Shown here: in pieces, positions 48,286 to 52,305 of the stretch
Position numbering within the stretch: the first letter of the stretch is position 1
How the letters are laid out: the number at the start of each line of letters is the position of its first letter
Origin: Guyparkeria hydrothermalis
Lineage (GTDB): Bacteria; Pseudomonadota; Gammaproteobacteria; Halothiobacillales; Halothiobacillaceae
Assembly (NCBI RefSeq): GCF_023555375.1
Contig: NZ_JAJSEE010000005.1
Coordinates: 1 to 64,000, forward strand
Direction of reading: 5' to 3'
Length of the DNA stretch: 64,000 nt
Position numbers and translations under genes: made by a program
Notes under the pieces: generated by a model
Databases searched by the model: none
What the model saw: only the letters and a program-made list of their open reading frames with translations
What the model was told of the DNA's origin: nothing

Positions 48286-51200
48286 TCATGACGTGGGCGG
48301 GTCGATGTGATCCGCGATCTGGCGGTTGTGACGCAGGCAGCCGGTCAGCTCGTCGAGCGGCATCGGCCTCGCGAACAGATAGCCCTGCAGGATGTCGCAG
48401 CCCCAGCCGACCAGGATGTCGCGCTGGGCCTCGGTCTCGATGCCCTCGGCGACCACCTTGATGCCGAGATGGTGCGCCATCGAGATCACGCCCTGCACGA
48501 TCGCGGCATCGTCGGCGCTGTGCTCCACGCCCTGGATGAAGCTGCGATCGATCTTGATCTTGTCGATCGGCAGGTGCTTGAGGTAGCTCAGGCTGGAAAA
48601 GCCGGTGCCGAAGTCGTCGATCGAGACGCTGATGGTGCTGTCGCGCAGCTGGTGCAGTGTCTCGATGGCCGTTTCCGTCTCGTTCATCAGGATGCCTTCG
48701 GTCAGCTCGAGTTCGAGCCGGTTGGCCGGCAACCCGCTGAGCTCGAGCATGCGGCGGATGGTGGCGAGAAAGTTGGGCCGGTTGAACTGCACCGGCGAGA
48801 GATTGATGGCCACGCGCCCGTCCTTCAGGCCGTGGTCGACCAGGGTCTTCATGTCGCGACAGGCTCGCTCGAGCACCCACTCGCTCAACGGGATGATCTG
48901 GCCGGTTTCCTCGGCGAGCGGGATGAAGGTGGCCGGCGAGATCCAGCCGTGGGTGGGGTGCTGCCAGCGCAGCAGGGCTTCGAGCCCGGCAATGCGGCGC
49001 TCCTCGCCCAGCACCAGCGGTTGGTAGAAGACCTGGAAATCGCCGTGCTCGAGTGCCTCCTGCAGGTCATTGCGCAGGCCGACGCGGTGGCGCACCTGGG
49101 TGTCGATGTCCTCGTTGAAGATCTGGCAGGTGTTCCGGCCCTGTTGCTTGGCCCGGTACATCGCCATGTCGGCCTGCTGGATCAATGCGGTGGCGTTCTC
49201 CTGACCCGGCTCGCTGATGGCGATGCCGATGCTCGCACTCAGGTACAGCTCGTGCTCGTCGATGCGGTAGGGGCGACCGATTTCGGGCAGCAGCCGCTCG
49301 GCCACCATCAGCGCCTCGTCCTCGCCGTCGATGTCGGCCAGCAGGGCGACGAACTCGTCGCCGCCGAAGCGCGACAGGGTGTCCTCGGCGCGCATCTGTT
49401 CCTCGAGCCGGCGCGCTACCTCGATCAGGATCTTGTCGCCCACGGCATGCCCGAGGCTGTCGTTGATCGGCTTGAACTCGTCGAGGTCGATGAACAGCAC
49501 CGCCACCCGGGTGCCGCGACGGCGGGTGAGCTCGACGGTGTGCGTCAGGCGATCCTCGAACAGGGTCCGGTTGCCCAGGCCGGTCAACGCATCGTGGGTG
49601 GCGTTGAAGGCCAGCTGCGCCTCGTAGGACTTGTGCGCCGAGACGTCATTCTGCAGGCCGACGAAGTGGGTGACCTCGCCGTGCTCGTCCTCCACCGGGG
49701 CGATATGCAACTCGTTCCAGAACAGGCTGCCGTCCTTGCGGTAATTGCGCAGCAATACGCGCACCGGCTGCTTGGCGGCCAGTCCCAGGCGGATCTGATC
49801 GATGGCGGCCGGATCGGTCTGCTCGCCCTGCAGGAACCGGCAGTTGCGCCCGATCACTTCGTCGGCCCGGTAGCCGGTGATCTGGGTGAAGGCGGCGTTG
49901 GTGTAGACGATCGGCAGGTCGGGCTGACGTGCGTCCGCGATGATCACGCCATGGATGCTCGCCTCGACGCTACGCTCGAGTGTGCGCAGGCGCCGTTCCT
50001 GTCGCTTGCGGACGGTCACGTCCTTGGCAATGCCGTAGGCGGCCTCGATCCGGCCGTTGATCACCATCGGCAGGAAGGTGACGTCGAACTCGTGCCGGCT
50101 GGCGTCGTCGTGCGTGACGGTCAGCTCGGTGACCTGGGTCCGACCCCGCAGGGTGCGATCGACGGCCTCCTGGATGGTCTGTCGTTCGCTTGCGTCGATC
50201 AGCTCGATCAGTGATTGGCCGGACAGGTCGACGTGCGGGCGGGCCAGCATGGCCTCGGTGGCGTGATTGAAGGTCTTCAGCCGCCCCCGGCTGTCCAGCG
50301 AGAAGACCGCGTCCGGGTTGTAGGCGAACAGCGAGCGGTAGCGCTGCTCGTTTTCCTCGAGGGCCGAGCGATCCCGGTGACGTTCGATGGCAAGCGAGAT
50401 CAGGTCCGCGGCCCGTGCGATCTGGCGGCGATGGGTCTGCGACGGCGTGCCCGGCTCGCCGCGGTAGCTGGCAAAGGTGCCGAGCACCGTGCCGTCGGAA
50501 GCCAGCAACGGGTAGGACCAGCAGGAGCGCAGGCCGTTGTCGGCGGCCAGTTCGGCAAACCCGGTCCAGCGGTCGTCCTTGGCGATGTCTTCGGTGATCA
50601 CCGGCTCGCGCCGATTCGCTGCGGTGCCGCAGGTGCCGATATCGGTGATCGGGATCATGGTCATTGCCGCGCGGTAGGCGGCGCTCAGGCTGGGTGCCGC
50701 GGCGAGATGCAGGTTCTCGCCCGACTCGTCGCTGAGCATGATCGAGCAGCGCGAGTCGGGGTCGTGCTCCTCCATCAGTTCGCAGACCGACGTCAGGGTG
50801 TGTTCGAGCGATTCGGAATGCAGGATCATCTGCTGGATGATCTGCTGGGATTCCAGTTCGCGGTGGGCCGCGGCCAGGCGGCGGGTCTGGGCGAGACGAT
50901 TTTGCCCGAGCGCCAGCATCAGCACGATCAGGTAGGTGATCGCCAGCCCGATCAGGGTGACGGCCGAGGGCAGCAGCGAGGCGATGAGCGGTTGCTGGCC
51001 ATCCTCGAGGTAGCTGCGGGCCGACAGTGTCGGTCCGAAGGGAAGCGTCAGTTCGCGCTGCGCGAGTACCGCCTTGTGCTCGTGGTGCTCCGGGTCGCTG
51101 TAGAGCTCGATATGCACGCCATCGTCCGTGTCGAGGTGAACGGCCAATGGTTGTGCCTGCGGTTGCAGTGCCTGGTGAAGCAGGCTGTCGAAATCGAGCA

Positions 51201-52305
51201 ACGCGAGGAACTGCTTTTCGCGCCGCTGCGGGTTGACCATGGGAACGGCGATCAGGCTGTTGCTGTTGCCGTGGCTGGATGGGTCGTCCAGCAGTAGCAG
51301 GCGTGGTGACGGATCGCGCTGCGACAGCCAGTCACGGGTCTGGGGTTTGGCGAGCAAGTCGGCCAGCAGTTCACCGCCACGGCGACCGCGATCGGCGTGC
51401 CAGACCACGTCCTGTTGGCGGTCCAGCATGGCCACGACCAGCAGGCTTTGCATGTCGCGCAGGTAGGTTTCGGCCTCCCTCTCGCGAATCGAATCGGCCG
51501 TCGGCAGGCTGCCGATCAGTTGCCAGCGTTCCGCCAGGCGCTTGAGGGTGTGGACACGGTCGGTCAGGGCCTGGTGACTGACACTCTCGACGCGGTCGAG
51601 CTGGATTTCACCGATCGCCTGCAGGTCGCGGTTGTGCAGCAGCGAGAGCTGGTACCACGCCAGGGCGGCGATCAGGGAGCCGAGCAGCCCCGCCGTCACG
51701 GCGATCGATCCCAGTTCGCGAAGATCGCTGTCGCGCAGCCGGCCGGCGAGCAGCATGGCGCCGCCAAACAACAGGGTGAACAGCGCGGCCACCCAGGCGG
51801 CCGTCGACTGGAACTGCAGCCATGGCGTGTTGCCGAGCAGCATCCAGAACACCGAGATGGTGCCAAGGAACAGCATCAGCGCGCCGACCCAGCGCCAGGG
51901 GCGACGCGCCAGTCGGGAGGTGCCGGGGATCATCAGGCTGACCGCAATGGCGGCCAGCAGCAGGGCGGCCTCGATGGAGAGGTGGTCGTGACCGCCGCCG
52001 TGGTCGGGGCTGAGGCTGGCGGGCAGATGGATGCCGTGAGTGGCCAGGCTGTAGCCGACCAGCGCCAGCAAGGCGAGCCCGGCACCGCTGTGCAGTACCC
52101 GCCATCCTTGCAGGTGGGCGCCAAGTCCCAGGCCGGCCAGCAGGGCCGCGAGGGCACTCTCGCGCGGCAGTGGCAGACCCAGTGGGCCCGGATCGGTGAT
52201 CAGCAGCGGCGCGACCAGTCCGACACTGCCGATGGCCAGGCAGGCGGCGACTACCATCAACAGATAGGACTTGGTCAGTAGTGGGCTGTCGGCGGCGGGG
52301 GTCAT
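48286..52305 (-). CDS. Membrane GAF-PAS-LOV-GGDEF-EAL protein (putative blue-light-sensing cyclic di-GMP enzyme)
   Basis: A 1339-residue protein. About seven hydrophobic segments fill residues 1-200, a periplasmic sensor part follows (about 205-420), then another membrane helix near 440. Cytoplasmic domains are GAF (about 510-660), PAS (about 665-770), a LOV-type PAS (774-890), GGDEF and EAL. The LOV domain has GRNCRFLQ with Cys822, NYRKDG, WNELH and FVGLQNDV, the flavin-binding set. GGDEF is intact at 981-985 with an RxxD inhibitory site (RAED, 972-975). EAL is intact at 1109-1111, with LTEGILM and [10 protein letters not shown]. Both synthesis and breakdown of cyclic di-GMP are possible. 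A GTG six codons upstream (52321-52323) is an alternative start. Confidence 0.92.

What the first reader, a model, noticed from the sequence alone, without database searches (positions are those of the whole stretch)
48286..52305. Apparently complete LOV photosensor fused to intact GGDEF and EAL domains
The second PAS domain has GRNCRFLQ (Cys822), NYRKDG, WNELH and FVGLQNDV, the residues that bind flavin and form the light-driven cysteinyl adduct in LOV proteins. GGDEF, its RxxD inhibitory site and EAL are all intact, so blue light could set the direction of cyclic di-GMP turnover. A membrane sensor half and a GAF domain precede it, making this a four-input switch. Light sensing by a probable sulfur oxidiser would be unexpected.
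Basis: partly seen in the sequence, partly recalled or inferred. Interest (0 to 1): 0.65.

Follow-up and report, generated by a model that had tools for sequence, protein, structure and literature searches.

The report
Light-sensing switch in sulfur bacterium
This gene encodes a membrane protein that very probably senses blue light and adjusts a bacterial signalling molecule; such proteins are well known, and finding one in a sulfur-oxidising bacterium is less unusual than it first looked.

Summary
Window 48286-52305 (-) encodes an intact 1339-residue protein: membrane region, CHASE-like outer domain, membrane helix, GAF, PAS, LOV, GGDEF, EAL. The LOV domain has the adduct cysteine (Cys822) and its flavin-pocket partners; GGDEF, its RxxD site and the EAL signature residues are intact.

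Full-length orthologues exist in 7 of 10 other genomes of the genus (Guyparkeria). In all 8 proteins Cys822, Asn854, Asn864, Gln885 and the checked catalytic residues are unchanged. LOV evolves about half as fast as the neighbouring PAS domain. The genus has SoxB; no photosynthetic reaction centre was found.

The novelty shrinks. LOV-GGDEF-EAL is a known class. The LOV motif is no rarer in SoxB-bearing gammaproteobacteria (6 of 118) than in others (9 of 247), and an unnamed SoxB-bearing genome of another family has the whole architecture (45% identity). The 21-residue LOV-GGDEF linker equals that reported for constructs of the SL2 study, so I predict that blue light lowers c-di-GMP (about even odds).

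Most interesting: the orthologue from deep-mine brine (about 715 m), described as lightless, keeps an intact LOV, so the signal there may not be light.

The parts
48286..52305 (-). coding sequence of the 1339-aa membrane/CHASE-like/GAF/PAS/LOV/GGDEF/EAL protein
   Evidence: intact ORF; full-length orthologues in 7 of 10 other genus genomes
51658..52305 (-). polytopic membrane region, residues 1-216 (six hydrophobic segments above threshold)
   Evidence: Kyte-Doolittle peaks; AlphaFold helices but low confidence, pLDDT 51
50986..51615 (-). predicted outer (periplasmic) sensor domain, about residues 231-440, CHASE-like
   Evidence: profile comparison with three CHASE-bearing histidine kinases, 98.6% probability; no direct Pfam CHASE hit on this protein
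50908..50964 (-). last membrane helix, residues 448-466
   Evidence: strongest hydropathy peak, 2.57
50383..50814 (-). GAF domain, residues 498-641
   Evidence: Pfam GAF_2 3.9e-18
50002..50316 (-). first PAS domain (no LOV cysteine motif), residues 664-768
   Evidence: Pfam PAS_4
49639..49977 (-). LOV domain, residues 777-889
49840..49842 (-). codon of Cys822, the expected flavin-adduct cysteine
   Evidence: invariant in 8 of 8 orthologues
49585..49647 (-). 21-residue LOV-GGDEF linker, D887 to L907
   Evidence: measured with the definition given in PMC10396304; residues 890-903 have the lowest dN/dS, 0.022
49132..49602 (-). GGDEF domain, residues 902-1058, with RAED inhibitory site 972-975 and GGDEF 981-985
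   Evidence: Pfam 1.1e-49; residues invariant in 8 of 8
48364..49074 (-). EAL domain, residues 1078-1314, all checked catalytic-signature residues present
   Evidence: Pfam 3.5e-77; residues invariant in 8 of 8
48233..48248 (-). possible intrinsic terminator just after the stop codon
   Evidence: consensus scan only, 5 sites found in the region against 2.0 (sd 1.3) in shuffles

Best explanation
A membrane-anchored, blue-light-controlled c-di-GMP enzyme of Guyparkeria, a chemolithotrophic sulfur oxidiser. Proposed steps: (1) the LOV domain binds FMN and blue light drives a reversible Cys822-C4a adduct (inferred from sequence, about 0.9 likely); (2) the change passes through the Gln885 strand and the 21-residue helical linker into the GGDEF-EAL pair (inferred, about 0.7); (3) the net result in light is more c-di-GMP hydrolysis by EAL, hence a lower c-di-GMP level and less surface attachment (inferred by analogy with SL2, about 0.5). 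The CHASE-like outer domain, GAF and PAS set the gain by unknown ligands.
For: LOV identity and fold. Cys822, Asn821, Arg823, Gln826, Asn854, Asn864 and Gln885 invariant in 8 of 8 orthologues. LOV dN/dS 0.145, near GGDEF 0.121 and EAL 0.122 and below PAS 0.276, GAF 0.211 and outer domain 0.326; LOV more conserved than PAS in 26 of 28 pairs, which are not independent. Checked catalytic and I-site residues invariant in 8 of 8. Linker of 21 residues, the length PMC10396304 gives for LOV-GGDEF constructs from LOV-GGDEF-EAL proteins that showed no light-driven cyclase activity, where it suggests EAL as the light target (passages). SL2 is a blue-light-activated PDE (PMC8846402, passages; PMC5812497, passages).
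Against: No measurement of flavin, light or enzyme activity exists here. The linker argument is weak: of the two constructs cited in PMC10396304 one lacks the GGDEF motif residues and the other is a truncation, and the same 21-residue linker occurs in short-linker LOV cyclases that light activates about 15-fold, so the direction is open. RprR of Ralstonia, a Cache-PAS-LOV-GGDEF-EAL protein, showed little blue-light effect on transcription. One orthologue comes from brine whose borehole waters are said to lack light. Arg839, aligned with a phosphate-side arginine, is His in 2 of 8 orthologues.
Confidence: 0.5

Rival explanations
1. Light activates the GGDEF domain instead, so blue light raises c-di-GMP and favours attachment.
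For: GGDEF motif and I-site are intact and invariant in 8 of 8. Short-linker LOV cyclases with the same 21-residue spacing are light-activated about 15-fold (PMC10396304, passages). MsLadC, the top PDB match across LOV plus GGDEF, is a light-activated cyclase.
Against: MsLadC has a 35-residue linker, not 21. LOV-GGDEF constructs with 21 residues taken from LOV-GGDEF-EAL proteins showed no light-driven synthesis, though one lacked the motif and one was a truncation. The EAL domain is at least as conserved as GGDEF.
Confidence: 0.25
2. The LOV domain is kept mainly as a flavin redox or oxygen sensor, or as a structural relay, and light is not the natural signal.
For: Intact LOV in the Soudan-12_1 orthologue from about 715 m down in a mine. 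RprR, with a near-canonical LOV motif, had dark or light-independent phenotypes, and RmcA's LOV-like domain, which lacks the cysteine, is proposed to read redox state as well as light. A sulfur oxidiser faces strong redox gradients (inference).
Against: The adduct cysteine is needed for the classical photocycle but not for a plain redox role (recalled), yet it is invariant in 8 of 8. RmcA is itself implicated in a light effect. The mine boreholes were drilled in the 1950s-60s, so recent arrival from lit habitats is possible.
Confidence: 0.2
3. The LOV domain is present but uncoupled, and the outer CHASE-like, GAF or PAS domains control the enzyme. (This overlaps with the redox/relay rival, so the odds do not sum to one.)
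For: A membrane region, an outer domain, GAF and PAS precede the LOV domain.
Against: The LOV-GGDEF linker is the most conserved stretch measured (dN/dS 0.022 over 14 residues) and LOV sits directly before it; the outer domain is the least conserved (0.326).
Confidence: 0.1

Closest known systems
SL2 of Synechococcus elongatus (LOV-GGDEF-EAL)
   Same: Canonical LOV, then GGDEF, then EAL (PMC8846402, passages). PMC10396304 says the constructs of the Cao 2010 study have 21-residue linkers; it does not name them in the passage seen.
   Different: SL2 comes from a phototroph. The Guyparkeria protein adds a membrane region, CHASE-like domain, GAF and PAS. I did not compare the SL2 sequence itself.
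RprR (Rsp0254) of Ralstonia pseudosolanacearum
   Same: Periplasmic sensor, PAS, LOV, GGDEF and EAL in a bacterium not known as a phototroph (PMC12802281, passages).
   Different: Outer domain is Cache, three PAS-superfamily domains, LOV motif GRNCRFLH rather than GRNCRFLQ; blue light had little effect. Sequence not compared here.
MsLadC and short-linker LadC (LOV-activated diguanylate cyclases)
   Same: MsLadC (8c05) is the best PDB match over LOV plus GGDEF, E 2.5e-56; short-linker members share the 21-residue linker.
   Different: No EAL and no membrane half; MsLadC linker is 35 residues.
Homologue in unnamed gammaproteobacterial genome G153
   Same: Whole architecture, 590 of 1319 aligned columns identical (45%), same LOV motif, same 21-residue linker, SoxB present, no reaction-centre match.
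   Different: Another family of the class; organism name not available.

Membership tests
Photoactive (canonical) LOV domain | PAS fold closest to solved LOV domains | tested here: met
   phmmer; AlphaFold model pLDDT 91, 50 of the 50 listed Foldseek matches are LOV-domain entries
Photoactive (canonical) LOV domain | GxNCRFLQ with the adduct cysteine | tested here: met
   GRNCRFLQ 819-826; Asn, Cys, Arg, Gln invariant in 8 of 8 orthologues
Photoactive (canonical) LOV domain | two flavin-contacting Asn and the signalling Gln | tested here: met
   N854, N864, Q885 in 8 of 8 orthologues and in 22 of 22 LOV sequences aligned; roles recalled
Photoactive (canonical) LOV domain | second phosphate-side arginine | tested here: inconclusive
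   R839 here; His in 2 of 8 orthologues, also Lys, Ala or Gly among other LOVs
Photoactive (canonical) LOV domain | bound FMN and reversible adduct | not testable with these tools
   needs a purified protein
LOV-GGDEF-EAL c-di-GMP enzyme | LOV directly followed by GGDEF and EAL in one chain | tested here: met
LOV-GGDEF-EAL c-di-GMP enzyme | active-site residues of GGDEF and EAL | tested here: met
   sequence signatures, invariant in 8 of 8; motif roles recalled
LOV-GGDEF-EAL c-di-GMP enzyme | 21-residue linker (as in the constructs of the SL2 study) | tested here: met
   D887-L907, definition from PMC10396304
Blue-light-activated PDE (SL2-like action) | light increases c-di-GMP hydrolysis | not testable with these tools
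   needs an assay
DibA phosphodiesterase (NCBIfam NF045675) | whole-protein curated cut-off 980 bits | tested here: not met
   545 bits over residues 758-1320
YtvA family (NCBIfam NF052652) | curated cut-off 250 bits | tested here: not met
   159 bits, residues 777-899, profile positions 3-125 of 243, the LOV part only
CHASE domain (PF03924) | Pfam match in residues 231-440 | tested here: not met
   no CHASE hit up to E 10 (HMMER filters drop most weak matches); only an indirect profile link through CHASE kinases, so 'CHASE-like' only

The most novel reading that the evidence does not exclude
A canonical LOV protein, adduct cysteine included, is kept under purifying selection across a genus of chemolithotrophs, including a deep-mine population, because its flavin reads redox, oxygen or sulfur chemistry at the membrane rather than (or in addition to) light, and turns it into c-di-GMP.
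Probability: 0.15. Interest if true: 0.65.

Novelty: new member of a known kind. Interest (0 to 1): 0.33.

Why it matters
It gives a conserved, genus-level candidate for light or redox control of c-di-GMP in chemolithotrophic sulfur oxidisers, a group for which my searches of the held library listed no paper on LOV photoreceptors. It also offers a clean test of whether LOV domains in lineages from dark habitats still act as photosensors.

Tried and rejected
Chance or artefact: rejected, because the ORF, fold and orthologues all agree.

A second photoreceptor in the genome: the sub-threshold BLUF hit at G000:C3:205381 lies in a 92-aa ORF that reads like an acylphosphatase (identified by eye), so I discount it. 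The similar sub-threshold hit in G010 was not followed. The rhodopsin search found none in 11 genomes, but its control rang nowhere, so absence is not shown. Phytochrome and cryptochrome were not searched.

LOV elsewhere in the family: the single hit outside the genus, G041, is a chance match in a 55-residue frame that is not a LOV. In the class sample, G132 is likewise not a LOV; I dropped it, leaving 15 of 365 genomes outside the genus. The exact-motif search misses variant LOV motifs, such as RprR's, and three genus genomes without the motif are incomplete, so absence there is not shown.

The N-terminal AlphaFold model was too poor to use (pLDDT 51), so no fold search was made with it. The naming scan returned five records, all Guyparkeria, Halothiobacillus or Halothiobacillaceae by title, but it used two short peptide patterns, so it cannot show absence elsewhere. 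A first LOV-coordinates script used a wrong spacing and returned nothing, corrected. For alignment A6 (22 rows) the script dropped two stretches that ran into a stop (L064, and the second LOV in L058); I did not give it L050 (not a LOV), L062 and L065 (same places as L067 and L058) or L051-L054 (same genes as orthologues already used).

Paper searches that led nowhere for this question: 71 papers, 12 listed; Beggiatoa and blue light; 2 papers; one, PMC6532209, passages seen, concerns photoreceptors in magnetotactic bacteria and reports no LOV protein identified there, though it also names a putative LOV/PAS-like gene in one strain; 1 paper, on nitrate chemotaxis.
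Full report
What is there. Window 48286-52305 on the minus strand is one uninterrupted gene of 1339 codons plus stop. Pfam places GAF at 498-641, PAS at 664-768, PAS/LOV at 794-889, GGDEF at 902-1058 and EAL at 1078-1314. Residues 1-480 have no Pfam family over its cut-off. Hydropathy gives six membrane segments up to residue 216 and one at 448-466, so roughly residues 231-440 should face outward (inference). Beyond the stop codon lies tRNA-Arg at 48126-48202 on the other strand; the upstream neighbour on the same strand is a phospholipid-methyltransferase-like gene at 52529-52987. 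In 5 of 5 named loci fetched, the gene keeps that neighbour and the large FGE-sulfatase/methyltransferase gene beyond it, so this is a stable chromosomal locus.

Is the LOV domain real? Yes. NCBIfam's YtvA photoreceptor model scores 159 bits on residues 777-899, below its whole-protein cut-off of 250, with only the LOV half of the profile matched. Against the PDB the LOV stretch hits Meiothermus LOV (7e-40) and YtvA (2e-38) first. A model from 22 aligned LOV sequences has pLDDT 91, and 50 of the 50 listed Foldseek matches (558 in all at E <= 0.001) are LOV-domain entries, LOV-derived fluorescent proteins included. The roles of the residues are recalled from LOV literature; their presence is measured. 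Cys822, its motif partners checked (Gly819, Asn821, Arg823, Gln826), Asn854, Asn864 and Gln885 are invariant in 8 of 8 orthologues. In the 22-sequence alignment Asn854, Asn864 and Gln885 are also invariant; residues 819-826 there are invariant partly by construction, because those sequences were found by that motif. One departure: Arg839, aligned with a second phosphate-side arginine (role recalled), is His in 2 of 8 orthologues.

Who carries it. Full-length orthologues at 69-86% identity are in 7 of 10 other genomes of the genus; the three without (G003, G007, G008) are 64, 87 and 85% complete, so absence is not shown. SoxB is in 10 of 11 genomes of the genus, the missing one being 64% complete; a reaction-centre match is in 0 of 11, with the control ringing only in Synechococcus as it should. 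The window genome has one NCRFLQ site in all and 22 EAL-domain matches. In the rest of the family, 1 of 16 genomes has the DNA motif and it is not a LOV.

Selection. Mean pairwise dN/dS over 8 orthologues (28 pairs): outer domain 0.326, PAS 0.276, membrane part 0.250, second membrane stretch 0.225, GAF 0.211, LOV 0.145, EAL 0.122, GGDEF 0.121, linker 890-903 0.022 (simple Nei-Gojobori counting). The LOV domain is therefore held nearly as tightly as the enzymes, and is more conserved than the sister PAS domain in 26 of 28 pairs, which are not independent.

Is a LOV surprising in a sulfur oxidiser? No. In a sample of 369 genomes of the class, 20 have GxNCRFLQ at the DNA level, against 2 for the backwards control. 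Reading each hit in frame, one (G132) is not a LOV, leaving 4 of the genus and 15 of 365 outside it. SoxB occurs in 122 of 369, 118 outside the genus. Both occur in 6 genomes, so LOV is in 6 of 118 with SoxB and 9 of 247 without (Fisher p = 0.58; related genomes, so only a rough test). Of the six, one (G346) has a reaction centre; five gave no match, one of them (G367) only 85% complete. G274's SoxB frame holds two stop codons.

Is the architecture unique? No. G153, SoxB-positive and without a reaction-centre match, encodes a homologue that aligns almost end to end at 45% identity. With a profile of residues 1-480 (which included the G153 row), 8 of 369 genomes match: 4 of the genus, G153 strongly (580 bits) and three weakly at 30-34 bits. 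The three weak ones are histidine kinases with a Pfam CHASE match over its cut-off, and profile comparison links the N-terminal half to them with 98.6% probability (only 9 and 3 rows, and the three were picked by the same profile). So the N-terminal half is probably a diverged membrane/CHASE-type sensor. The four genomes outside the genus that match are all SoxB-bearing, a small observation that I did not test further.

How it probably works. PMC10396304 (abstract, passages and part of the reference list seen) sorts LOV-GGDEF proteins by linker length, measured from the Asp of D(I/V)(T/S) to the Leu of DxLT. Here it is D887 to L907, 21 residues. Of ten other loci given to the script, four (three distinct proteins: L060, L061, L062/L067) had a readable linker, each of 21; six gave none. 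The paper says short-linker cyclases are light-activated about 15-fold, whereas LOV-GGDEF constructs with 21 residues from LOV-GGDEF-EAL proteins (Cao 2010, its reference 37) showed no light-driven synthesis; one of those lacked the GGDEF motif residues and the other was a truncation. It suggests EAL as the light target. SL2 is reported as a blue-light-activated phosphodiesterase (PMC8846402, passages; PMC5812497, passages). I therefore favour light-stimulated hydrolysis, at about even odds overall. Shown: domains, residues, linker, conservation. Inferred: flavin, photocycle, coupling and direction.

The case against light. RprR of Ralstonia has a similar plan (Cache, PAS, LOV, GGDEF, EAL), yet blue light changed little (PMC12802281, passages). 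RmcA's LOV-like domain, which lacks the cysteine, may read redox state, although it is also implicated in a light effect (PMC8846402, passages). The orthologue in MAG Soudan-12_1 (L044; [quoted passage not shown] It keeps every LOV residue checked except Arg839, and shows 2 lineage-specific changes in 113 LOV positions, against 2, 3, 2 and 6 in the other four lineages compared. The boreholes date from the 1950s-60s, so recent arrival from a lit site is possible. This keeps a non-photic role alive at roughly 0.2.

Novelty. About 18% of 1390 bacterial LOV proteins already had GGDEF or GGDEF+EAL outputs in 2014 (PMC4844311, passages). Searches of the held library for a LOV domain together with Halothiobacillus (0 papers), with sulfur-oxidizing and photoreceptor (0), with chemolithoautotroph (2, neither on sulfur oxidisers by title), and for blue light with sulfur-oxidizing bacteria and c-di-GMP (1, on nitrate chemotaxis) gave nothing on this. 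The two Guyparkeria genome papers I searched contain no word beginning with 'light'; the other 28 of the 30 papers that mention the genus were seen only as a listing. This is a new, well-conserved member of a known kind.

Noticed in passing
L044 / L004 (MAG Soudan-12_1): Intact LOV photosensor gene in a population from brine about 715 m underground, in borehole waters described as lacking light.
   Followed up: partly
window 38444-39715 (+): EAL-HDOD protein in the same window; its EAL match is much lower than others (61.6 bits, profile 14-236), perhaps non-catalytic (guess).
   Followed up: no
window 53144-55306 (+): DinB and FGE-sulfatase domains fused to a methyltransferase domain, resembling an ovothiol/ergothioneine-type sulfoxide synthase (name recalled); beside the LOV locus in 5 of 5 named loci.
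   Followed up: partly
L073, L074, L075: The only weak relatives of the N-terminal half in the 369-genome class sample are CHASE histidine kinases, all three in SoxB-bearing genomes; the sensor may belong to sulfur oxidisers.
   Followed up: no
L058 / L065 (genome G274): Two short LOV proteins encoded about 1.2 kb apart in a SoxB-bearing genome without a reaction-centre match; its SoxB frame holds two TGA stops.
   Followed up: no
window 55407-56462 (+): ORF without Pfam match, matched at 65-70% identity in all five related loci; the conserved protein may lie in this or another frame.
   Followed up: no
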